64,000 nucleotides of DNA from Symmetrospora coprosmae (lineage: Eukaryota > Basidiomycota > Cystobasidiomycetes > Symmetrosporaceae). Position 1 is the first letter of the stretch, and the number at the start of each line of letters is the position of its first letter. Made by a program: the position numbers and the translations under genes. The notes beneath the pieces were generated by a model. It saw only the letters and a program-made list of their open reading frames with translations, did not search any database and was not told the origin of the DNA. The DNA lies in contig VUYT01000026.1 in the NCBI GenBank assembly GCA_008802785.1, positions 124,001 through 188,000 of the forward strand, given 5' to 3'. Below are positions 4,615-18,328 of this stretch, in pieces.

Positions 4615-5451
4615 TCATGGAAGTCCTCCTCCTATTCCAACGGGTGAAGCTGGCGACGCCTTGGATGGATCGCGACCAGGCACCTCCGGCAAGTCGCTGT
4701 CCTCTTCAGCTTCCTGCTTGTCGAGCTTGGCTATTCGCCCTCTCAGGTTGGAGATACGGAGCGTCCTCGCCGTCTGTAGCCGTTTAGCCCGTGCCAGGTC
4801 CAGCGTGTCGTAATCCGGGATGGTCTGCGCTGGCGGGTCCAGCTTTCCTTCTTTCCGGTGCAGCTCTACCAGGAGGTTCTGAATCTCCGCGTCATTAGCC
4901 TCCAGTGTTTCCCTGATCTCGACGACTTCTTCATCGTCTCGTAGCCGGTAGAGCGCCTGTGTTGCGGCCTGCTCGATGTCGGTGAAGCGCTTCGGACCGA
5001 GCATGGTCCCGCCGAACCAGCGAGCCACGCAGCATGTCACATCGACAGCGTTGGCCTTTGCCAGTGCTTCAACGATGGTCCTGCCGCCCTTTGTCTCTCC
5101 ATCGTCAATCGCGGCCGTCTTCACCTCAAACTCTTCGGACTTGTAAGCCTTGGCAGCCAGCCATCGCGTCCCTTGCATGATGTGCGACGGCTCGTCGTCG
5201 CGGTAGTCGGCCACGCCTTGTTCCACGACATATTCACGCAGCTGCTTCGCCTGCACAGTGTTCTCGCAGTTGCCGGCATATGCCACAAAGACGGAATCGC
5301 GGTCGATGAGCGGGTCCGAAATGCCAAAGGGAGAGGGTCGTTTCGGTGCGGGTACGTGAAAGTATCCGTCTAGCTTGGACCGTTTCGAGGAATCTGCCGC
5401 TGTGGCATCCGAGGACGCGCTCGCGGTGCGCTTGAGGCCGGATGACGACAT
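4615..5451 (-). CDS. IMPACT/YIH1-type UPF0029 domain protein
   Basis: Single exon, 278 aa. Residues about 50-165 match the Impact N-terminal (UPF0029) fold: SVFVAYAGNCENTVQAKQL near the start, then DDGETKGGRTIVEAL, and the signature VARWFGGTMLGPKRFTDIEQ. The first 45 residues are Ser/Lys-rich, with a possible nuclear signal (KRSKLD). The C-terminal third is charged and helical (LRGRIAKLDKQEAEE). IMPACT and Yih1 bind Gcn1 and restrain Gcn2. Those proteins carry an N-terminal RWD domain that is missing here, so this looks like the stand-alone, YigZ-like version and its role is uncertain. The start is the first Met of a continuous frame. Confidence 0.8.
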   Translation of the reverse strand: MSSSGLKRTASASSDATAADSSKRSKLDGYFHVPAPKRPSPFGISDPLIDRDSVFVAYAGNCENTVQAKQLREYVVEQGVADYRDDEPSHIMQGTRWLAAKAYKSEEFEVKTAAIDDGETKGGRTIVEALAKANAVDVTCCVARWFGGTMLGPKRFTDIEQAATQALYRLRDDEEVVEIRETLEANDAEIQNLLVELHRKEGKLDPPAQTIPDYDTLDLARAKRLQTARTLRISNLRGRIAKLDKQEAEEDSDLPEVPGRDPSKASPASPVGIGGGLP

Positions 5452-6043
5452 GTCCAGTCTTCGAGGTTCGTTTGCTCGGGCACGCGCTTCGCGACTCTGC
5501 TCTTGACCGAGGCGTCAGAACGAATTCGCTCGATGACAGAGTCTTCACACTTGCAGGAGCTCACCTACGGTTGCTCGAAGCCAAAGAGCAGTCTGGCCTT
5601 GAGATTCCGGCCTTTCTGACGGAACTCTCGCCCTGCAGTTCTGGCACGGGATGGCTGAAGCCTAAGATCCTCGCAGGGTCGCGGCACTGAAGGCGCTCCT
5701 GGATATTGGCACTTTATGCGGTCGCGAGGTGAATGCGCTCGAATTTCGAAAGCTATTAGGTCAAACGTCGTCCAGGAGTGAGCGGTGAGGGCGGCCTCCA
5801 AGCGGACCAAACGACGCAAGCTGACCACAAGCGGCATCAAGCGTTCAGCAATTTGAGAACAGACAATGAGTGGATGAGGTCGGCGTCGGGTCGTGCCCGC
5901 CAAATCCATCCGCCATCATCCGCGTCTCCAGGGCGACCCGGTCTGTCGGTTGCGTCAAGCGCGGAGGTCTCGAGTCGCCTTCGAATCTCGGCGTTCGTCG
6001 CACGGCTTCACTCCTCAGTTCCCTACGCTCAGGCGACGTGCTT
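5452..6043. other. Non-coding stretch upstream of the IMPACT gene
   Basis: No open frame here shows a recognisable domain or good splice structure. It presumably contains the IMPACT promoter. Nothing else is supported. Confidence 0.4.
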
Positions 6044-6557: not shown

Positions 6558-7900
6558 CGTAAGGACCGCCTGTTGAAGGCCTATACGCCTCCAGGGTCAT
6601 TGCTAATAGCAAGTCTCGCTTGACCGCAGCGCCCAGTCGTTCCTGTTCTCGGTAAGCCCTGGATAAACAACATATGGCCGGAGCTCTGCGGCTGATATGC
6701 TTTCCTGCTCGTCTCCGCAGATCGCACTCGGTACGGCTGTCAATACACGATGTCTGGATTGTCGTTGTGCTAATATCCTCCCTTTCTGGCAACCAGATTC
6801 CGAAACAACTCGGTCAGGCAAAGCGCAAGTTGTAGGCTGCTGCTGCACAGCTAACATCCTGTCCATACGCTCAGGCTATCCCGGATCATCAGTATGGTTT
6901 TATCGCTCTCCATCACTCTTCTGTCCCTGCACCTCTTCACCAGGCAACGTGAGTCAGCGTCTGTCGGACCCGGTGACCGAGCATGGCTGACGAACCGGAT
7001 ACGTCTGGAGTCTGCGCCGAGGCGGCTGATCGTAAGCTCCCTTATGGTCTCAGGCCTCTCGTGTGCGTGCTGACTGGGATGCGTCCCTGCCTCTCGTCAG
7101 ATGAATGGCTGTGAGTCGATTTCGCGTGCTCCAGTGATGTGATGTTGAACAAGCGAAGCCGACTTTTGCGACACGCAGCATCGACTTCGAGAAGCGTCAC
7201 GGCGTCGAGTACGAAGACACGGCATTCGGAGACAATTGGCGGCGCCGCCGGTTCCGCAAGCATCCAGCTGCCGGACCGCTTGGCTGGCTGGCCATGCATC
7301 GGTGTGCAAAGGTCGCGTCATCCGCTCTTTACGTAACAGCGATCTGACAAGATGAGCGTGTTACTGCAGGGCTTTCCCGCTGTGGGCAACGGGTCTCATG
7401 ATCTTCGCCGTGGCAGCCGTGCTTGTACTTCTCGTCAGCATCTTCAAGCTCGAGCTGCTGCAGAGTGCTGAAGGAAAGAGGGCAGGCGGGAGCTAGGTTC
7501 TCTTTCAGCAGACACGACGTGGCACGCGTGACATGCACAAAATTGACGCCGAGGTATCCTTCAGCGAGTTCTGCGAGAGGGATTGCCCTTGACTGCTCAG
7601 CTAGTCCCATAAGGCGAGGTGCGCGTGTCTGTGATATGACTGACTGCCCAGGCCCGTACCCGTACACATGCCAGATTCCCACGAACCCTTGAAGGCCGGC
7701 TGCTAGCCAGATCACCGACTGCTCCAAGCAATGAAAGGGACTGGTGCCGTAAATCCCCATTTGACCCGCCCGCTGGCTCTCGGTACACAGATGATCTGGC
7801 CCATCGTGCGGTCCACTCGTTTTGACATCTGCCAATCAAGATACTGATCATACTTTCAAATCGACTTCAAGCTTCGACCAAACCAAGCATGCCACAGATA
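6558..7900. other. Gene-poor stretch
   Basis: Only short frames lie here. The longest is a minus-strand frame of 168 codons at 7329-7835 with no recognisable domain, which I do not accept as a gene without transcript support. The right end should hold the promoter of the secreted gene starting at 7901. Confidence 0.4.
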
Positions 7901-9113
7901 ATGCGAGCTACTCTCAGCTGGCTGACTATTGCAGCGAGTGCAGCTCTGGTCGTCACAGCAAATCACACTATGCCGCTTGGCAAGCGCGACACCGCCTACC
8001 TCGATAGCACCGAGCCACTCCCGCATGATAAACGGTCTGCTGGGTCTGGTTGCAGCGCCTATCCTCTCGATCTCAGCGCCGCCATACCATACGTCAGATT
8101 CGTCGCGGCAAGTTCCGATGCAGAGGCCGAAGGTGACTTCAGGGGGATGCAATGGACGATTGGCATCGCGGGCTGGTAAGTTGCGGTGAGACCGCTGACT
8201 GGTCACCTTCCAAGGGACCGCACTGAGCCTCGAGCCGATGCTATACTAATCTGATGCTATTTGCACACTCCCTGACGCTACACGGACTCAGTCCGTCTGT
8301 CGAGCTCCATAGCGCGATGGCGCGTGCTAGCAAAGCCCGTGGGTCGGCTCAATCTCCTGGCTGTACCTGAAAGCTGATTTGAGGGCCCGTCATGCGCTTA
8401 TGCCGCAGAGACAACCAACACTGCTATCCTGCGGCAGTGTCAGACCTTCCTCCTGAGGGAACTTCCAGGAAGAGGGGAGCAGCAGACGTTCGCGATACAA
8501 GTTGCGCATCCGACCACCTTCTTCGGTTGGAGCAACGAGAAAAGGGCTGAAAACGCGGAGTACGTAAGCTTGCCAATTCCCAGCAGCTATGGCGGCTTGG
8601 CTGAGTGAATAGTTCGATCTGCTTGCCGTGTTACTTTCAGCGGGGTATCCTTCAGGTTTCTCGGTACGTTGATTCCATGACTGACCTGGACGGCTGGCTG
8701 TAGTGTAGGCTTGCAGACTTATGACAAAATCCCGTCTTCGAAGATCCTCTCTGGACGCCCATTCAGCGCTTCAAGCTCGATTGCACAAAGACGTATCAGA
8801 AGGGACAGTCTGGCATCCTGGGTCAAGATTGCCTCATAAAAGGAAAAAAAGATCATGAAGAGGAGGTGTGCTTTACTCTCGAGCCCGTTGCGGACGTCTC
8901 CAGCGAGCAGCAGGCTTTGCAATGGAAACCGTGTGGGGAAGTCGACCCGAAGTTGGGGCGCTGGAACATCCGTGAGTAACACGCAGGGAGATCGAAGGCA
9001 GGCTTTGGACGACGCTGTCGTTTCTGATGTAGACGCCCTTCCGTCCGCCATCCGCAGACGATGCTTCGGCAGACTTCAGTGAGATGCCTACCTACACTTA
9101 CGCCACGCCGTAG
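7901..9113 (+). CDS. Secreted seven-cysteine protein, tandem copy 1 (unrecognised family)
   Basis: I place six exons: 7901-8175, 8292-8338, 8409-8559, 8656-8663, 8744-8971 and 9058-9113. All junctions are GT-AG, and the summed length of 765 nt gives 254 aa with no internal stop. A signal peptide (MRATLSWLTIAASAALVVTA) is followed by two dibasic sites (GKR, DKR) that a Kex2-type protease could cut. Conserved blocks are DTAYLDS, DLSAA.PYVRF, FLLRELPG, QQTFAIQV, DPLWTP.QRFK, DCLI.G, PCGE.D and MPTYTYA. Seven cysteines are shared with copy 2. Exon 4 is only 8 nt. An in-frame Met at 7889 is an alternative start; 7901 matches the start of copy 2. No known family is recognised. Secretion, small size and tandem duplication suggest an effector-like or surface protein, which is inference. 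Confidence 0.75.
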
Positions 9114-9615
9114 CCCTTCAACCGTCATCAGGTTAATGCCGGTAGCAATCGTCTTAGATGCGCCAGTGCTGGTCACTCGCGATGCCTCAGCTGCTTAGGA
9201 CGTAGAGGCAAGCAACGATAGCCAGTCTCTCCGGAGAAGGTTCAGACCATTCCCGGGTGCAGCTCACGCGTGCGCAGCGCCCCTGAGATTGACCGAATGC
9301 ACGCTGCGACGGATCTCCTACGCGATCATGTGCGCTGCTTTGCGGTCGGTGGCCAATCCTGCTTGCTGATCCTGCTGTCGCACCGGAACTTTCCCACGAC
9401 CTTCTGACGCTCGGCCGCTACTCACACGGCGGCCACTTGAACCGCTGAAAGGTACGGTGCCTTTGACACCCCTGATCTACCTAACCAGCCCCGGGGCAGC
9501 GCGAGCTCAAAGTCTTGTGTGGGTGCAGATCTACGCCTGGCCGAGTCATACCTCAGATCCATACCACCAGTCTATCTCCGGTCGAACCTTAGCTATTGTA
9601 GTTGCCCCACACACA
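9114..9615. other. Spacer between the tandem paralogues
   Basis: About 500 bp with no supported gene. It contains the 3' end of copy 1 and the presumed promoter of copy 2. I see no terminal repeats or target duplications that would mark a mobile element. Confidence 0.4.
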
Positions 9616-10782
9616 ATGCGTCCTACCTTCGGCTGGCTAACGACAGTGTCGGCTGCAATTCTGGTCGTCACAGCCAACAGCACACTCCCGCTCGCCCAGC
9701 GCGACACTGCCTATCTCGATTCATCCCCGCCGCTCCCGCATGCCAGGATGTGGCGGGCCTGGATGTAGCACGTATCCCTGGGATCTCAGCGCCGCTGTCC
9801 CCTACGTCAGGTTTGTCCTGGCGAGCTCAGCTGGAGACGCCGAGGGTGAGTTCCAAGGCTCGGAATGGACGATGTCCATCACCAACTGGTAGGCGGTACA
9901 GTTGCTGAGCCTTGACTAGGCTGTCAAGCAATTGGCTGTCTGACGCGATGCCTGATGATCGCTACCTGCGCGCGTGCCCTTCCAGTGAAGACAAGCTAGA
10001 GGATCAGAACGTATACGCTTACAAGGCCCGTGAGCGGACCCTTTCTCAGTGCATCTTCGGCAGCACACTCATGATACACTTTCTGCGTATGCAAACCGCA
10101 GGGCCGATGAACGACTACGACGACACTGTGTGGAAATGTCAATCATTCTTGCTGAGGGAACTTCCGGGAACCGCAAAGCAGCAGACATTTGCCATCCAGG
10201 TTCCGCTCCCGACAACCTTTCACGGCTGGACCAATGAGGGCAGGTGCATACTTATGGTGCTCCCACCGCAGCTAGTCTGGCATGTGCTGACTGGGTAGTC
10301 AGTCGTTATCTTTACCGCGCCAATGCTCAGTAACCTGCACTTCAGGCATCTTGGTGAGTATGTCGGCTGACCTGCATGACTAGCTTCGTGGATCCGGGAC
10401 TCATCATCAAAATGCCACCGTTCACAGATCCTCTCTGGACGCCATCTCAGCGCTTCAAGTTCGAATGCAGGAAGACGCGTCAGAAGGGGCAGTCTGACTG
10501 GACGTTCGGCAGAGACTGCCTGATCAGAGGCACGAAAGACGGCCAGGACGAAATGTGCTTGGGTGTGCCGCCCATCGAGGACGTCACCGAGCAAGCAATA
10601 GAGGTGGTATGGGGGCCATGTGGGGAGATCGACGATAAGTACGGGCTATGGAATATAGGTGAGTTGAGGGCCAGAACTGTCGATGCCACCTGGACAATGC
10701 TGATGGTCATGGCTGCCCTGTGAACTAAGACGATGCGTCAGAAGACTTTCCGGATATGCCCACATACACGTATGCCATGTAG
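9616..10782 (+). pseudogene. Secreted seven-cysteine protein, tandem copy 2, probably frameshifted in exon 1
   Basis: The exon layout is the same as in copy 1: 9616-9888, 9986-10029, 10102-10243, 10346-10353, 10428-10658 and 10730-10782. The introns sit at equivalent positions and the 8-nt micro-exon is kept. The start MRPTFGWLTTVSAAILVVTA is a signal peptide, then DTAYLDS. All seven cysteines of copy 1 have a counterpart, as do FLLRELPG, QQTFAIQV, DPLWTPSQRFK, DCLIRG, PCGEIDDK and MPTYTYAM. Exon 1 is 2 nt shorter than in copy 1, and this puts its first part out of frame with the rest. The copy is therefore either recently inactivated or affected by a sequencing error. Exons 2-6 remain open, which argues that any decay is young. 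Confidence 0.65.
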
Positions 10783-11188: not shown

Positions 11189-11990
11189 TTAGCGCCGTCG
11201 AGCAACGAAACCCTTCAGAAGATCTCGCAGAGAGTCCCCGATGGATCCAGCTCCGCCCTCCACAGTGTTGGCTGTGGACGAGGAGGTCTGCGCCGCAGCA
11301 GCAACGGGCGCGGCCTGCGAGGCGGCAGGGTCAACGCCCCAGTACGCAGTTGGGGAGGCGCTGCCGAGGGGAGCTCTGTCGCCTCCGGTGCCTTCCGTCG
11401 CAGTCGGCTCAGCAAGTGTGATGTTGGCGTTTGGGTCGTGCGAGAGCGCAAAGCCTTGCTGCGTGTCCGACACAACCTGCCCCTGGTAGAGCTCCTGGAC
11501 GAGCAAGGTGTAGTTGCCGTCGGCTATGGCAGCCGAGTCGACTGTGATGGTTGTGTTGACTGTGTACCAGTTGTCGACGAACGGCAGGTCCGCAGCAATG
11601 GCATACACGCCGGTCGCGTTCTGCAGGGACACGGTCGCGGTCGTCTCGTCGGCGCGTTCCTGCAGGATCCAGAAGAGGTGAGCGCGACTCGGCGGGCGGA
11701 GAAGCAGGGCTGGCAATACGCACACCGTTACGGTAGGTAAGGAGGAATGTCGAGTTGAGCTCGCTGCTGTTGGCCAGCAGGAAGAAGTTGGGAATGGGCT
11801 GCAGGATCTCGGCGACTGCGTGTGATGGACGAAAAGAGGGCGTCAGTCCATCCTTTGCAAAGCGCAGCGCGCGAGCACAGTAAGACCCACAATGAGGTGC
11901 ACGACTGTTTAGCAATGGGATGACGCTCGCAGAGACGCTCATTGCTGCCGTGGCTGCCGCCATCACGAATCCTGCGCTGAGTCGGGGCAT
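11189..11990 (-). CDS. Small secreted protein of unknown function
   Basis: Three exons. Exon 1 encodes a signal peptide (MPRLSAGFVMAAATAAMSVS) and ends at PH. An intron with donor GTGGGT, a CTGAC branch site and ACACGCAG acceptor follows. Exon 2 (FAEILQPIPNFFLLANSSEL...TYRNG) joins in phase to exon 3 (ERADETTATVSLQNATGVYA...). Alternating hydrophobic residues (WYTVNTTITVDSAAIADGNY) suggest a beta-sandwich. Several N-glycosylation sites are visible (NSS, NST, NAT, NTT, NYT, NIT). The C-terminus is Ala/Ser-rich and ends VARRR, without an obvious GPI signal. No family is recognised. It lies in a run of genes for exported proteins. Confidence 0.7.
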
Positions 11991-12506
11991 CCTGGCCGAG
12001 GTCGAGGTCGTTGCTGGAACGGAGGGTGCGAGCGCAGGCGCAGAGCTGAAAAGACGGAATGGGAATCCTGCAAAGGAGAGTGCGATGGCAGATGGTGCCT
12101 GCGTGTGGGTGTGTATGTGCAGTCAAGGTCCAGACTGAGCGTGTGCAGGAAGTGATATGTCGTGGAGCAGAGGCGGAGTGAGGAAGCAGCCGCGAAGGTG
12201 CACGCGCGTGTGTGCTTGGGTGACATCGACGGCCCGCTGCTATGGTGGCAAATGGGCAAGGACGCGTTCGCAAGGGGCAAGAGCAAGCACAAAGACCGTG
12301 ATGTGACGTGATGGGATAAGCTGCAGCATCGTTGAGCACGACAAACGCAGAAGAGGCTATGGTACACAAGAGTGTGGAGAGACGACGAGGACACTGCTAT
12401 GCAAATTGCGGGCAGGTGCGGGGAGAAAGAGTAGGGCGAAGGGCTAACACCACGAAGCCAGCTAAAGCCGGCAGGTGTAGCCGTTGACGACAGAGCGCGC
12501 GCACGC
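11991..12506. other. Intergenic, promoter of the small secreted gene
   Basis: About 515 bp between two minus-strand genes. Open frames here are short and carry no domain. It should contain the promoter of the gene starting at 11990 and the 3' end of the Rds1-like gene. Confidence 0.4.
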
Positions 12507-13760
12507 TTAGAAGAGCGTAGCGGCGGCAGCGGCGACCAGGCCCATGGCGAGGCCGGCAGCGGCAGTGACACCAGAGGTCCTCGAGGCAGCACCAGTGGTG
12601 GCAGCGGCGTTCGAGCCCACAGTCGAGTTGGATCCACCTCGGGTAGCACCAGCACCGGAGGATGCAGTGTTGTTCTTGGTGTCGAGCTATCGCCGAAAAA
12701 GCCATTAGCCCCCATGCGTGCATGCAAATGGAGAGGACCGGAAGAGACTCACGTTGAGCACGAACGGTCCAGCAAGGACAGTCGAGTCGTTGAAGCCGGA
12801 GTTGGAGCTCGAAATGACACCGTAGGCCTGGCCAGTGGTAACGTTCTGCGACGGGATCTGGCACGATCCGTTCTGGTAAGGCGAGATAGCCTGGCCGAGA
12901 CCAGAGAGGAAGATCTACGAGGTGGGCATTGTCAGCACCAGCAAGCACATCGGCCGAATGGACATGGCAAAAACTCACGCAGTACTTGTTGCCCTCAGAG
13001 GTCGAGTTGGCGTACGAGACCTGGATGGTGCTGCCAATGGTGGCATTGGCGCTGGTCAGGTTGGCAGCGGGGAAAGGGGTGAAAGGAGGAGCCGAGCCAT
13101 CCGGGCACGACATGAAGAAGGGCGTCGCGATGGACTGCACCGACGTGGGCGTGAGCGGGGTGTCGAAGGTGACGGCCGGCGAAAAGCCGTTGACATAGCG
13201 GATGAAGGCAGTGTGCCTGGCCTCGGCGGTGAGGATGGCGCCCGCGGCCGTCAGGTAGGCCGGGTTCTGAATGTACTGCGCAGCACCGAGGTAGGCGCTG
13301 GTTCCGACACCCTCGAGGACCTGCGACAGAGCGAGGAACGAGTCGACGCTGGTGTAAGGGAAGTTGTAACGGCAAGCCTGGACGGGCGTCGCGCCTGCAG
13401 CCGAAAGGGCGCTCGTGAGGAACGAGACGTGCTCGGCCTCATCGGCAGCGATCGTCTCGATGTTGGCGCGGATGTTGCTCGCGTATCCAGCAGAGGTGAA
13501 GTCGCTGGCCGAGAAGTTGGACAGGGCCTGCGAGTAGAAGGTCGCCTCGAGGTGCTCAAGGACGAGGGCAAAGTTGAGAATCTGCGTGAGTTGTGCGAGA
13601 GACCCGTCAGCGCTGTGCTTCTGCCAGGAAACAACACCCAGAACAAACTCACGTCGGCATCCGTGAGGGCCGGGGCAGCTGCCTGTCGCTTCTCAACGGC
13701 GGCACCGTTGGTCGAGACGGCCAGAGCGGCGAAGACAGCGGAGATGAGTGCAGCACGCAT
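12507..13760 (-). CDS. Ferritin-like Rds1-family secreted protein, probably GPI-anchored
   Basis: Four exons, 13653-13760, 12979-13581, 12753-12914 and 12507-12686, add up to 350 aa in phase. A signal peptide (MRAALISAVFAALAVSTNGA) and a KR dibasic site open the protein. The ferritin-like helical domain shows EHLEATFYSQAL, FTSAGY, IAADEAEHVSFLTSAL, CRYNFPYTSVDSFL and AEARHTAFIRYVNG. The Glu and Glu-x-x-His residues are placed as in metal-binding ferritin-like proteins. The C-terminus is Ser/Thr/Ala-rich and ends in a hydrophobic tail (AAAGLAMGLVAAAATLF), typical of a GPI signal. Rds1-type proteins in fission yeast respond to nutrient and stress signals. The present function is not known. Confidence 0.85.
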
Positions 13761-14639: not shown

Positions 14640-17600
14640 TCACTGCAAGCCCATCTTGAGCAACGATCCCACGAGGTCAATCTCATTGAAGGCGTCCTGG
14701 AGCGAGCTTGCAGCCCCAGACGAGGCGGCCAGCGCCCCTTCCTTCCTCGAGTGCAGGAACGCCAGGGTCGAGCGGAAGTGCTGGACGATGTTGTCCGGGC
14801 TTGAGACGCCCTCGATGAGGCCCGCCGTTGCGCTCGATGAGGTCGGGTGCACGTCGCTCCCATGGATGTTGTCAATGTTGGACGTGATGAGCTCGACGAG
14901 GCTGTTGATGTGCTTGGGCGTGACGGCCTCGACCTGCCTCTCAAAGTAGTAGATGTACTGGTCGAGCGCATCAACGTACAGCTGCACCGTCGTGATCTCG
15001 TCGATGCAGTTTGTCGCAATCCGCAGCGCCTTTTGCAAGCACTCGAGCACGCGCTTCCCATCGCGGCACAGAGGCTTGCCCTCCTTTGCCGCTCCGCCCG
15101 CAGTCTCCGTCTGCCACCACAGGTGCGATGCGAGCATCACCGCTGTTGCCTGATGCCCCTTCTTGAGGAGCTTGGCTCCGTGCAGTGCCGCCTTTGTGAT
15201 GAGCGTGTCGTAGTTGTCTGCCGTAAAGACGCGCGCCTGCTGCAGTGTCTGGATAACCAGCGTGATGGCCTGCAATTGCGCCCGACTCTCCGAGATGGAC
15301 TCCTCGTAGATGGTGAACGCCTGCACCGCGAATTCGTACGCGATGTCCTCTAGATCTGACTCGTCTGCCGCTTGCAAAGCGAGCAGGTATAGGCGCAGGC
15401 AGATCTCCGACGCGTCTGATGGTGAGTTGTAGAGGGTGGAAATGACTGCATGGCAAGTGCGAGTCAGCGATAGATCATCAGCGGTGCAAAGTGTGTCACA
15501 GGCGCTGACCTTGGTGAATGAAGCGGAACAGCGTCGACGCTTTCGCCTCGCCCTCCATGTCCGAAGGCGAGATGCCAGCTTCGACAGCTTTCGCTCTGCG
15601 TCGACGTGCAAGCTTGACGGCCGCGACAATGAGCGGAGGGAACGTCCAGCGTATCCTGTCACCACCTTCTGCGAAAGCTGTCCGTGCCGTTTGTAGGAGC
15701 TGAAGGAGAACCAAGCCGTCGTTATCAGTTCCAGGTCGGCAGACACGTGAACCTGACCTGAGCTTAGCCCACCTTGAACTGCACATCGTCGTCATCGTTC
15801 CGGAAGAGGTGCACTAGCCTCGCGACCCAGCCCTGCTCCTCCGCCATCTCTTGCAAATCGTACATCTGCCCCCCGCGCTGGCTGCTCCCGCGCAGCATCG
15901 GTCCGCCGCGGAGCTGTCCCTGCCCATGTCCCATCCGCTGCTGCTGGTAGCCCTGCTGCTGTCCAAACTGCATTGGCATCCCGATATTCGCATCGCGTTG
16001 ATCCTTGATGAGCACGTGGCACAGGTCGAGGATCCCCTTTACCTCCTCGGGCGTCGAGATGATGGTTTCGCGCTTGAGGACGGACGACACAATCGCGTGC
16101 CCGATGGCACGACGCGTCGCATATGGCTGTGATTGGAGAATGGGCGTGTATGTGGGAATGTGGAGCAGGTCCAGAGGTGATTGGTACGAGGTGATGGGCG
16201 CGACAAGGAGAGCAAGCAGGTTCTGCACGGTGGCAGGGTGGTGAAGGTCCGGGCTACAAGCAGAAACGCATCGTGAGCGACTGTTCCGCAAGGTGGGGCG
16301 CTACATCTCAACGCTGAGACTCACCTATCGGCATACTCGTCTACCTTCATCTTGGCAAAGCTGAGCACCTGGTCGACATAGTCGATGCGGTCCGGATAGC
16401 ACGACAGCGATAGGTTGATGAGCGAAACAAAAAGGGCAGTGATGTCCTGGATGGAGAGGTCCGGGCGGGCCTTGATGAGCTCGACGACCTGGTGCCAAAA
16501 GACCTCAAACAGCTTGACGTCTTCCGGGATGCCGCGGTACTTCTTCACTTCCGGCTGATGCTGCTGTTGTGGCGCCGGTGGCGTTTTCTCCGTTTCGGCA
16601 GCCGGCGTCTCCCCCTGCTCGCCATTGGCCCCCTCGCCGTTCGCGGCGCCTGCCTCCCTATCCACCTGCCCGTCTTTCTCCGAGACGACGCTGTCGACCC
16701 CGCTATCGCCGCCGCTCTTCTCTGTGCCATCCAACGAAGCTGCAGCTGGCTTTGCCGCGGCCTCGGCTTTCTCCTGCTCGGCCTTCTCATCATTCTCTGC
16801 CTCACGAGCTGCATAGGCGGCCAGACGGTCGATCAGAGCAATGACGATCTGCTTGATGTTGACTTTGGGGTGGAGCCGAGCAGTCGCCGATAGGAAAGGG
16901 CCAAGCGTGCGTAGATGGAAGTCGTCCGTGAAGACCTGGCACGCAGAACGGATGAGATGAAGCTAATCAGCGTCCCTCCCTGCCTCGTCCACGGTGAGAC
17001 CACCGTACCTGAATGACCACTTCCATGAGGTACTCTTGCGCAATGACGTCCTTGCAGTTGACGACCTGCTCGAGAATAGCTGGCAAGATGATGCGCCTGT
17101 ACATTTCGAGGTCGACGCCTTCGAGCTGCGACAGGCGGACGAGGTTGGTCCCGACGAGGATCCGGAGCTCCTTCCTCTCCATCTCGCGCTTCTCCCTGTC
17201 GCGCGACAAGCCCTGGTGCTGCAGTCGCACCCAGAGCTTGTTCATCTCGATAAAGTTGGTCAACACGAAGCCAATGGAGTCGTACAGGTTGCCAGAGGGT
17301 CTATGCGCGCGGGGGGAATACGAAGCACGTTCCGCCTCGTCAGCCTGGCGAGCGAGCGAGCTCGACATGAAAGTGGAGCAGTGCGCCCACCCTTGGTCGT
17401 TGCCTATTGGCAGGTGATCACGCGTCATGCCCGAGAGGTAGTATCGGAGGAAGAGGCCTCTTGTAGGGTGCTGAACCCCACGAGCCATCTCCATCATGTC
17501 CTTCATGATCTCCTTGATTGGCGCGTCGGGCACGCTGAGGTAGACTGTCCCGACTGTGATCATGAGGTACAGCCGTGGGACAATGTTCCCAGCGTACTGG

Positions 17601-17944
17601 ACGAGCTCGTACAGGTCGGCGAGGTGGTGCCTGCCGTTCGAGTGCGCCTCAAAGAGGTAGGCGGACAGGTGGCGGAGCGCGTCGAACACGGCCATGTAGA
17701 GCTCGTAGTACTGCTTGGGCGACAGGGTTGAGCTGCGGAGCTCGGCGAGCATCTGCGAGGCGTGCTTGAGCGAGTCCATGAGCTGGTCCCCGTCCAGGCA
17801 CTTCTTCATGAGTCCGAGCTGCTGCTTTACGGTGATGAGGCACTCGCCCAGGCTGCGACCGCCATCCAACCCGGCTGCCCCTGATGCTGCGCCTACGTCT
17901 GCCCCGCCTGCTGCACTCCCTCCTGCCGCTGCTGTGGATGCCAT
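14640..17944 (-). CDS. VPS35: Retromer subunit Vps35
   Basis: Vps35 is the alpha-solenoid backbone of the retromer cargo-recognition trimer, which returns receptors from endosomes to the Golgi. Five exons are read: 17009-17944, 16325-16935, 15773-16253, about 15513-15699, and 14640-15447. Family landmarks are [40 protein letters not shown], the [10 protein letters not shown](T)VY segment, and [18 protein letters not shown]. The last contains the PRLYL and RGLFLRYYL motifs needed for Vps26 binding. HEAT-like helices continue to the C-terminus ([11 protein letters not shown]). A Glu/Gln/Ala-rich acidic insert lies in exon 2 (16560-16750). Another endosomal sorting gene, VPS23, occurs at 60-62 kb. 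Confidence 0.96.
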
Positions 17945-18328
17945 CCTTGCTGCAGTTGCGTGTATGTGCGCCTGCCTCTATCCGCGTGCGTGCTCGATGA
18001 CGATACGGGGCCAGCGGACTCGGACTGCGGGCCTGTTGGACGCCTTCTCCGACGTTCGGTGCAGTGATGGCCTGGCCACTGCGATCTGATGGGATGGATG
18101 CAGCGATGAGCAGGCTATTGCTGTCCTCCTGGTGGGCTTGGTGGTGTTGGTCGAAGCGGGAAGGGCGCAGGAGGGCGAGGAGGAGCACACGGGAAGGGGC
18201 CAAGGCGCTTGCCCGGTCCTCGAGGAGGAACAAGGACGTCGTCGACACTCTGCACAACTCCCATTCCTACATATACTCGATATCGCATCCATGCAGGATG
18301 CAGTCCGCGTAGCAGCGTCGTCAGCACA
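17945..18328. promoter_or_regulatory. Divergent promoter between VPS35 and the CaaX protein gene
   Basis: The two ATGs point away from each other across 384 bp, so both promoters must lie here. The sequence is GC-rich without a convincing TATA box. Confidence 0.5.

What the first reader, a model, noticed from the sequence alone, without database searches (positions are those of the whole stretch)
7901..10782. Tandem pair of an undescribed secreted seven-cysteine protein family
Two neighbouring loci encode paralogues with signal peptide, DTAYLDS, FLLRELPG, QQTFAIQV, DPLWTP.QRFK, DCLI.G, PCGE.D and MPTYTYA motifs. All seven cysteines occur in both copies. I recognise no known family. Position in a gene-poor stretch, secretion and tandem duplication are usual for fungal effector or surface-protein genes.
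Basis: partly seen in the sequence, partly recalled or inferred. Interest (0 to 1): 0.75.

Follow-up and report, generated by a model that had tools for sequence, protein, structure and literature searches.

The report
Orphan secreted eight-cysteine fungal protein family
Two neighbouring fungal genes belong to an eight-locus family of probably secreted, disulfide-rich proteins with no recognisable relative in the databases searched; families of this sort are common in fungi, so it is a real but not startling find.

Summary
Copy 1 (7889/7901-9113) is an intact six-exon gene model for a 263- or 259-aa protein: hydrophobic N-terminus, pro-region ending in KR, ~214-aa domain. Copy 2 (9616-10782) carries every motif named, but its signal/pro part and its domain lie in different frames, so as assembled it is broken. 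The pair is old (dS 1.56, near saturation; dN/dS about 0.23). It is part of an eight-locus family in this genome: three tandem pairs and two singles on four contigs. The core has eight cysteines (CX4C-X35-41-C-X25-30-C-X55-60-C-X15-16-C-X8-20-C-X19-22-C); copy 1 lacks the first, hence 'seven'. DTAYLDS lies in the pro-region. One member has eight CX6-7C repeats before the domain. Pfam, NCBIfam, PDB sequences and two searches of 5.8 billion proteins gave no convincing relative, while a control gene of the window found 57 proteins, nearest named Cystobasidium minutum (Pucciniomycotina, not Ustilaginomycotina). Neighbours are housekeeping genes. Best reading: a lineage-restricted, Kex2-matured, disulfide-stapled extracellular domain, more likely binding/surface than enzymatic; an effector role is possible but untested. 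No fold of the whole protein was obtained.

The parts
7889..8175 (+). copy 1 exon 1: hydrophobic signal-like N-terminus, pro-region with KR at residues 32 and 48 of the 263-aa model, start of the domain (GC..YPLDLS..PYVRF). In-frame ATGs at 7889 and 7901; 7901 aligns with the start of copy 2
8292..8338 (+). copy 1 exon 2; its first base completes the codon of the third core cysteine (C96 of the 263-aa model)
   Evidence: the same split Cys codon in copy 2, C8:100.9k, C8:336.9k, C11 Y and C29 (C11 X has no intron there; not modelled in C8:99.3k)
8409..8559 (+). copy 1 exon 3 (RQCQTFLLRELPG..QQTFAIQV)
8641..8663 (+). copy 1 exon 4 (23 bases)
   Evidence: like-placed short exon (23-35 bases) in copy 2, C8:99.3k, C8:100.9k, C8:336.9k and C11 Y, not in C11 X or C29
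8744..8971 (+). copy 1 exon 5 (DPLWTPIQRFKLDC..DCLIKG..CGEVD..WNI), four of the core cysteines
9058..9113 (+). copy 1 exon 6 (HDASADFSEMPTYTYATP, stop)
9616..9741 (+). copy 2, first piece: signal-like N-terminus and pro-region (ends SSPPLPH), 28/42 identical to copy 1; its frame closes soon after, out of frame with the rest
9749..9888 (+). copy 2, second piece, rest of exon 1: CGGPGCSTYPWDLSAAVPYVRF, in a different frame from the first piece
9986..10029 (+). copy 2 exon 2
10102..10243 (+). copy 2 exon 3
10331..10353 (+). copy 2 exon 4
10428..10658 (+). copy 2 exon 5
10730..10782 (+). copy 2 exon 6 (..DMPTYTYAM, stop)

Best explanation
The pair belongs to a lineage-restricted family of secreted proteins. 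Each is made as signal peptide, short pro-region and ~200-220-aa domain. The pro-region is cut at a KR site (Kex2-type) at or just before the first cysteine, releasing a disulfide-stapled, strand-rich domain with eight cysteines in the core (four likely bridges). The domain most likely acts outside the cell as a binding or surface module (wall, neighbour or host surface), not as an enzyme. One paralogue carries it as the end domain behind eight CX6-7C repeats. SHOWN: family, gene structure by splice sites and homology, Cys pattern, purifying constraint, lack of detected relatives. INFERRED: secretion, Kex2 cutting, disulfides, strand content, binding role.
For: Eight loci in G000. All introns of the modelled runs GT..AG; phases identical in the two copies and partly shared in the others. 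Copy 1 vs copy 2 domain, 208 codons: dN 0.36, dS 1.56, ratio 0.23; changes by codon position 65/60/104; 6 of 28 pairs gave a ratio (0.23-0.42), 22 were saturated. Core Cys columns 2-8 invariant in every row that reaches them; the first lost only in copy 1. Hydrophobic N-terminus in 8 of 8 loci, best 11-residue mean hydropathy 2.08-2.82. KR directly before the first core Cys in 5 of the 7 loci where that stretch reads in one frame (C8:99.3k, C8:100.9k, C8:336.9k, C11 X, C11 Y), at the matching place in copy 1, absent in C29; copy 2 is broken there. No invariant His, Lys, Arg, Tyr or Thr. C29 member: eight CX6-7C repeats, 37% Ser+Thr, then the domain.
Against: No expression, localisation or fold data. 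The only fold run (75 aa of exon 5, two rows) had mean pLDDT 53.3, so its strands mean little. Invariant Asp, Glu and Gln leave an enzyme possible. Signal peptides were judged by hydropathy, not by a trained predictor. dS is near saturation, so the ratio is rough. 3 of 8 loci are broken as assembled, which could mean the family is decaying. The C29 member lacks the KR site.
Confidence: 0.55

Rival explanations
1. Host-directed effector: the released domain acts on a plant, fungal or lichen partner and the family diversifies under that pressure.
For: Same general build as Kex2-processed pro-domain effectors described in PMC10942635 (passages seen): Cys-rich, pro-region, little sequence likeness. 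Multi-copy, with broken copies.
Against: Purifying rather than diversifying average ratio (0.23; an average can hide selected sites). Housekeeping genes among the neighbours. Organism and lifestyle unknown. No expression data.
Confidence: 0.2
2. Extracellular enzyme or enzyme inhibitor of unknown fold, maturing by pro-region removal.
For: Invariant Asp61, Glu129, Gln137, Gln177 and Asp247; pro-regions are common in secreted hydrolases (general knowledge).
Against: No Pfam family, no NCBIfam match near its cut-off, only weak PDB sequence matches; no invariant His, Lys, Arg, Tyr or Thr.
Confidence: 0.15
3. Antimicrobial or killer-type protein aimed at competing microbes.
For: Probably secreted, Kex2-type site, Cys-rich, multi-copy.
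Against: No match in any library searched; larger than most such proteins (recalled).
Confidence: 0.07
4. Decaying remnants without function.
For: 3 of 8 loci carry an apparent frame break or an early stop as assembled.
Against: Coding signal, exon/intron identity contrast, conserved splice sites, five loci open over the modelled coding sequence.
Confidence: 0.03

Closest known systems
Kex2-processed pro-domain (K2PP) secreted Cys-rich fungal proteins, including FOLD proteins (Avr1, Avr3, SIX6, SIX13) of Fusarium oxysporum f. sp. lycopersici (PMC10942635, passages seen)
   Same: N-terminal secretion signal (hydropathy here), pro-region ending at a dibasic site, Cys-rich mature part of roughly 200 aa, little sequence likeness between members
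   Different: FOLD: six Cys of shared spacing in the N-domain, and in SIX6 a single bridge in the C-domain. Here four core Cys lie in the first ~80 residues and four in the last ~90. No PDB chain matched convincingly
Fungal orphan candidate effectors grouped by structure (PMC10462633, abstract and outline seen)
   Same: Secreted candidates without known relatives
   Different: That set is from Pezizomycotina; this organism looks like Pucciniomycotina and no fold is available to compare
CFEM domain (eight-Cys fungal extracellular module; recalled, no call)
   Same: Eight Cys, fungal, extracellular
   Different: CFEM is about 60 aa and mostly helical (recalled); the Pfam scans listed no family at all for these members

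Membership tests
K2PP class (FOLD included) | Signal peptide plus pro-region ending at a Kex2-type site | tested here: met
   Sequence feature only; cleavage not tested. Hydrophobic N-terminus in 8 of 8 loci; KR at or next to the first core Cys in 6 of 8 loci (copy 1 included; C29 has none, copy 2 is broken there)
FOLD | Six cysteines of shared spacing within the N-domain | tested here: not met
   Core spacing CX4C-X35-41-C-X25-30-C-X55-60-C-X15-16-C-X8-20-C-X19-22-C: only four in the first part. The FOLD feature is taken from the text; its alignment figure was not seen
FOLD | Two-domain fold (N-domain of strands with or without a helix, C-terminal beta-sandwich) | not testable with these tools
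   Spliced proteins fall outside what structure prediction says it accepts, and no homologue was returned; the exon-5 piece alone had pLDDT 53.3
Any Pfam or NCBIfam family | Score at or above the curated cut-off | tested here: not met
   0 Pfam families at E<=10 for 6 of 6 members given (8 loci known); the one NCBIfam match, in 1 of 6, scored 11.8 bits against a cut-off of 243.2
Fungal host-directed effector | Action on, or induction by, a host | not tested
   No expression or host data
Lineage-restricted (orphan) family | No detectable homologue outside the lineage in broad searches that do find other genes of the genome | tested here: met
   0 hits at E<=10; the control Vps23/UEV protein gave 57 at E<=1e-5. 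The search is word-seeded, so distant relatives can be missed; the lineage itself could not be sampled

The most novel reading that the evidence does not exclude
An undescribed extracellular fold, confined to one basidiomycete lineage, used in two ways: released free by Kex2-type cutting (most members), or displayed at the end of a Ser/Thr/Cys-rich repeat stalk (C29 member). That would be a home-grown surface-recognition module in a little-studied group of yeasts.
Probability: 0.3. Interest if true: 0.55.

Novelty: new member of a known kind. Interest (0 to 1): 0.33.

Why it matters
It adds a family with a clear cysteine signature and gene structure to the many secreted fungal families that sequence searches cannot place, in a group with few secretome papers in the library searched (9 papers for Cystobasidiomycetes + genome + secreted proteins; none for Cystobasidium + effector + cysteine-rich). 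The eight-Cys pattern and the stalked C29 member give definite handles for a fold prediction and for localisation tests. It is not startling: orphan secreted families are routine in fungal genomes (general knowledge).

Tried and rejected
Recent tandem duplication: rejected, dS between the copies is near saturation (1.56). Gene-poor effector island: not supported, housekeeping neighbours. Ustilaginomycotina origin: not supported. In the control search the best named hit was Cystobasidium minutum (61%); the one Ustilaginomycotina hit that I recognised, Acaromyces ingoldii (placement recalled), had 45%. That is one gene only, and Cystobasidium onofrii has 48.8% GC (PMC10422843, passages) against about 60% in this window, so the genus is open. 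FOLD membership: Cys spacing not met. CFEM: no Pfam match. Links to N-acetylgalactosamine kinase (E 0.053), PsaO (E 2.1), antibody chains (E 0.14 and 0.65), a mutarotase model (E 0.095), three PHROGs families (E 0.1-0.49, one member each) and DUF3084 for the C29 N-terminal part (E 0.55): weak, treated as chance. Viral contigs: 19 pattern matches, none confirmed. The exon-5 model (pLDDT 53.3) was judged too poor for a fold search, so none was run. In checking this report I found that a line I had drafted (that no single query finds all eight loci) was wrong: one search finds all eight.

Full report
Setting. The window is bases 124001-188000 of contig C18 of an unnamed 20.05-Mb, 77-contig genome, about 60% GC. 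C. minutum is in Cystobasidiomycetes, Pucciniomycotina. One gene is thin evidence, but it does not favour Ustilaginomycotina.

Gene models. Copy 1: exons 7889-8175, 8292-8338, 8409-8559, 8641-8663, 8744-8971, 9058-9113; introns GT..AG, 70-116 bases, phases 2,1,2,1,1; 263 aa, or 259 aa from the ATG at 7901 that aligns with the start of copy 2. Copy 2: a signal/pro piece 9616-9741, whose frame soon meets a stop, and a domain run from about 9749 to 10782 with the same five intron phases, in another frame. Whether that is a true mutation or an assembly error cannot be told here. The domain run still shows constraint against copy 1, so a true break would be recent (inference).

Not chance. Over copy 1's exons 516/781 ungapped columns are identical (66%), over its introns 178/388 (46%). 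Changes fall 65/60/104 on codon positions 1/2/3 over 208 domain codons; dN 0.36, dS 1.56, ratio 0.23. Of all 28 pairs of loci, 6 gave a ratio (0.23-0.42) and 22 were saturated at synonymous sites. The copies are therefore old.

The family. Six protein searches of the same genome, at E up to 1 or 10, list places that all fall on eight loci: C18 copy 1 and copy 2; C8 at 99.3 and 100.9 kb; C8 at 336.9 kb; C11 at 684 kb (X) and 682.5 kb (Y), minus strand; C29 at 81.7 kb. The C11 Y exon-5 query finds all eight (weakest E 0.16); the others find seven, seven, five, seven and five. The tool scores only its best candidates, so more distant members may exist. Five loci are open over the modelled coding sequence (copy 1, C8:100.9k, C11 X, C11 Y, C29; the C-terminus of C8:100.9k is unsure, as its model was ended without a stop). 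Copy 2 has a frame break in exon 1. C8:99.3k has an apparent one: its exon-1 frame stays open, but likeness to the family stops about 15 residues before the splice site and the phase does not fit exon 2. C8:336.9k has an in-frame TGA about 20 residues before the family's usual end. In an eight-row tree the C18 pair, the C8 99/101-kb pair and the C11 pair are each sisters with moderate support (85/85, 83/86, 87/89); the split of {C11 X, C11 Y, C29} from the rest has 100/99, the only starred one of five inner branches; C11 X is a long branch.

The domain. Core spacing is CX4C-X35-41-C-X25-30-C-X55-60-C-X15-16-C-X8-20-C-X19-22-C (the C8:99.3k row covers only the last five Cys, and its exon-1 piece has the CX4C). 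Copy 1 lacks the first Cys, which explains 'seven'; with an odd number it may carry a free thiol (inference). Invariant residues besides Cys are D, L, P, V, F, E, Q, W, I and one S, over the 7 or 8 rows that reach them. KR stands directly before the first core Cys in five loci and at the same place in copy 1; C29 has none and copy 2 is broken there. In copy 1 DTAYLDS lies between the two KR sites of the pro-region, so it is probably not in the mature protein. The C29 member has eight CX6-7C repeats (37% Ser+Thr after residue 60) before the domain. Intron phases are 2,1,2,1,1 in both C18 copies; 2,1,0,2,1,1 in C8:100.9k; 2,1,0,2,1 in C8:336.9k; 2,1,0,1,1 in C29; 2,0,0,0,2,1,1 in C11 Y; 0,0,1,2,1 in C11 X: a shared frame with gains and losses.

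Relatives. The four-row alignment A2 had 7029 candidates, 0 at E<=10. Copy 1 residues 117-224 had 21 candidates, 0 at E<=10; that stretch was chosen because 121-224 shares words with 6 of 6 other members compared. Pfam: 0 families for 3 of 3 exon or ORF pieces at E<=1 and for 4 of 4 and 6 of 6 members given. NCBIfam, PHROGs, PADLOC: nothing beyond chance. PDB sequences: weak matches only, none. Viral contigs: none confirmed. Bacterial and archaeal contigs were not scanned (one search failed). The protein search is word-seeded and can miss distant relatives, and fungal genomes without gene models are not covered.

Structure. The exon-5 piece (75 aa, two rows) gave mean pLDDT 53.3 with predicted strands; I put no weight on it.

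Surroundings. ORFs of N-myristoyltransferase (168-1166), UPF0029 (4615-5514), Ferritin_2 (12397-13692) and Vps35 (three ORFs within 14640-17977) flank the pair; of the 20 ORFs scanned, 6 had a Pfam family at E<=0.01. Contig positions (C8 99 and 337 kb of 414 kb; C11 683 kb of 1584 kb; C18 132 kb of 297 kb; C29 82 kb of 181 kb) put no locus within 70 kb of a contig end.

Reading. The most likely case is a lineage-restricted secreted family whose Kex2-released, disulfide-stapled domain works outside the cell, with binding or surface function favoured over catalysis because no catalytic signature is recognised and one member carries the domain at the end of a repeat stretch. The effector reading keeps about one chance in five. 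The nearest described class by build is the Kex2-processed pro-domain proteins including FOLD (PMC10942635, passages), but the FOLD cysteine pattern is not met.

Literature. The listings showed no paper on this family. PMC10942635, PMC10422843 and PMC8355462 were seen in passages, PMC10462633 in abstract and outline, the rest in search listings only.

Noticed in passing
L031:2559-4260 (G000:C29): Family member with an N-terminal run of eight CX6-7C repeats, Ser/Thr-rich, before the eight-Cys domain; no KR in the protein.
   Followed up: partly
L014:3349-4496 (G000:C8): Member with an in-frame TGA where the family has the Trp of WNI, so it ends about 20 residues early.
   Followed up: partly
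L013:2271-3418 (G000:C8): Member with an apparent frame break late in exon 1, beside an open paralogue that starts 1.6 kb downstream.
   Followed up: partly
window 12397-13692, minus strand: Ferritin_2 (PF13668, E 1.1e-47) protein near the pair.
   Followed up: no
window 11189-11990, minus strand: Possible secreted or wall protein with a Ser/Ala-rich tail (by eye; no Pfam match for 11189-11842), 0.4 kb from copy 2.
   Followed up: no
window about 6900-7495, plus strand: Possible small intron-bearing gene ending in a membrane-spanning stretch (LWATGLMIFAVAAVLVLLVSIFKL), by eye only.
   Followed up: no
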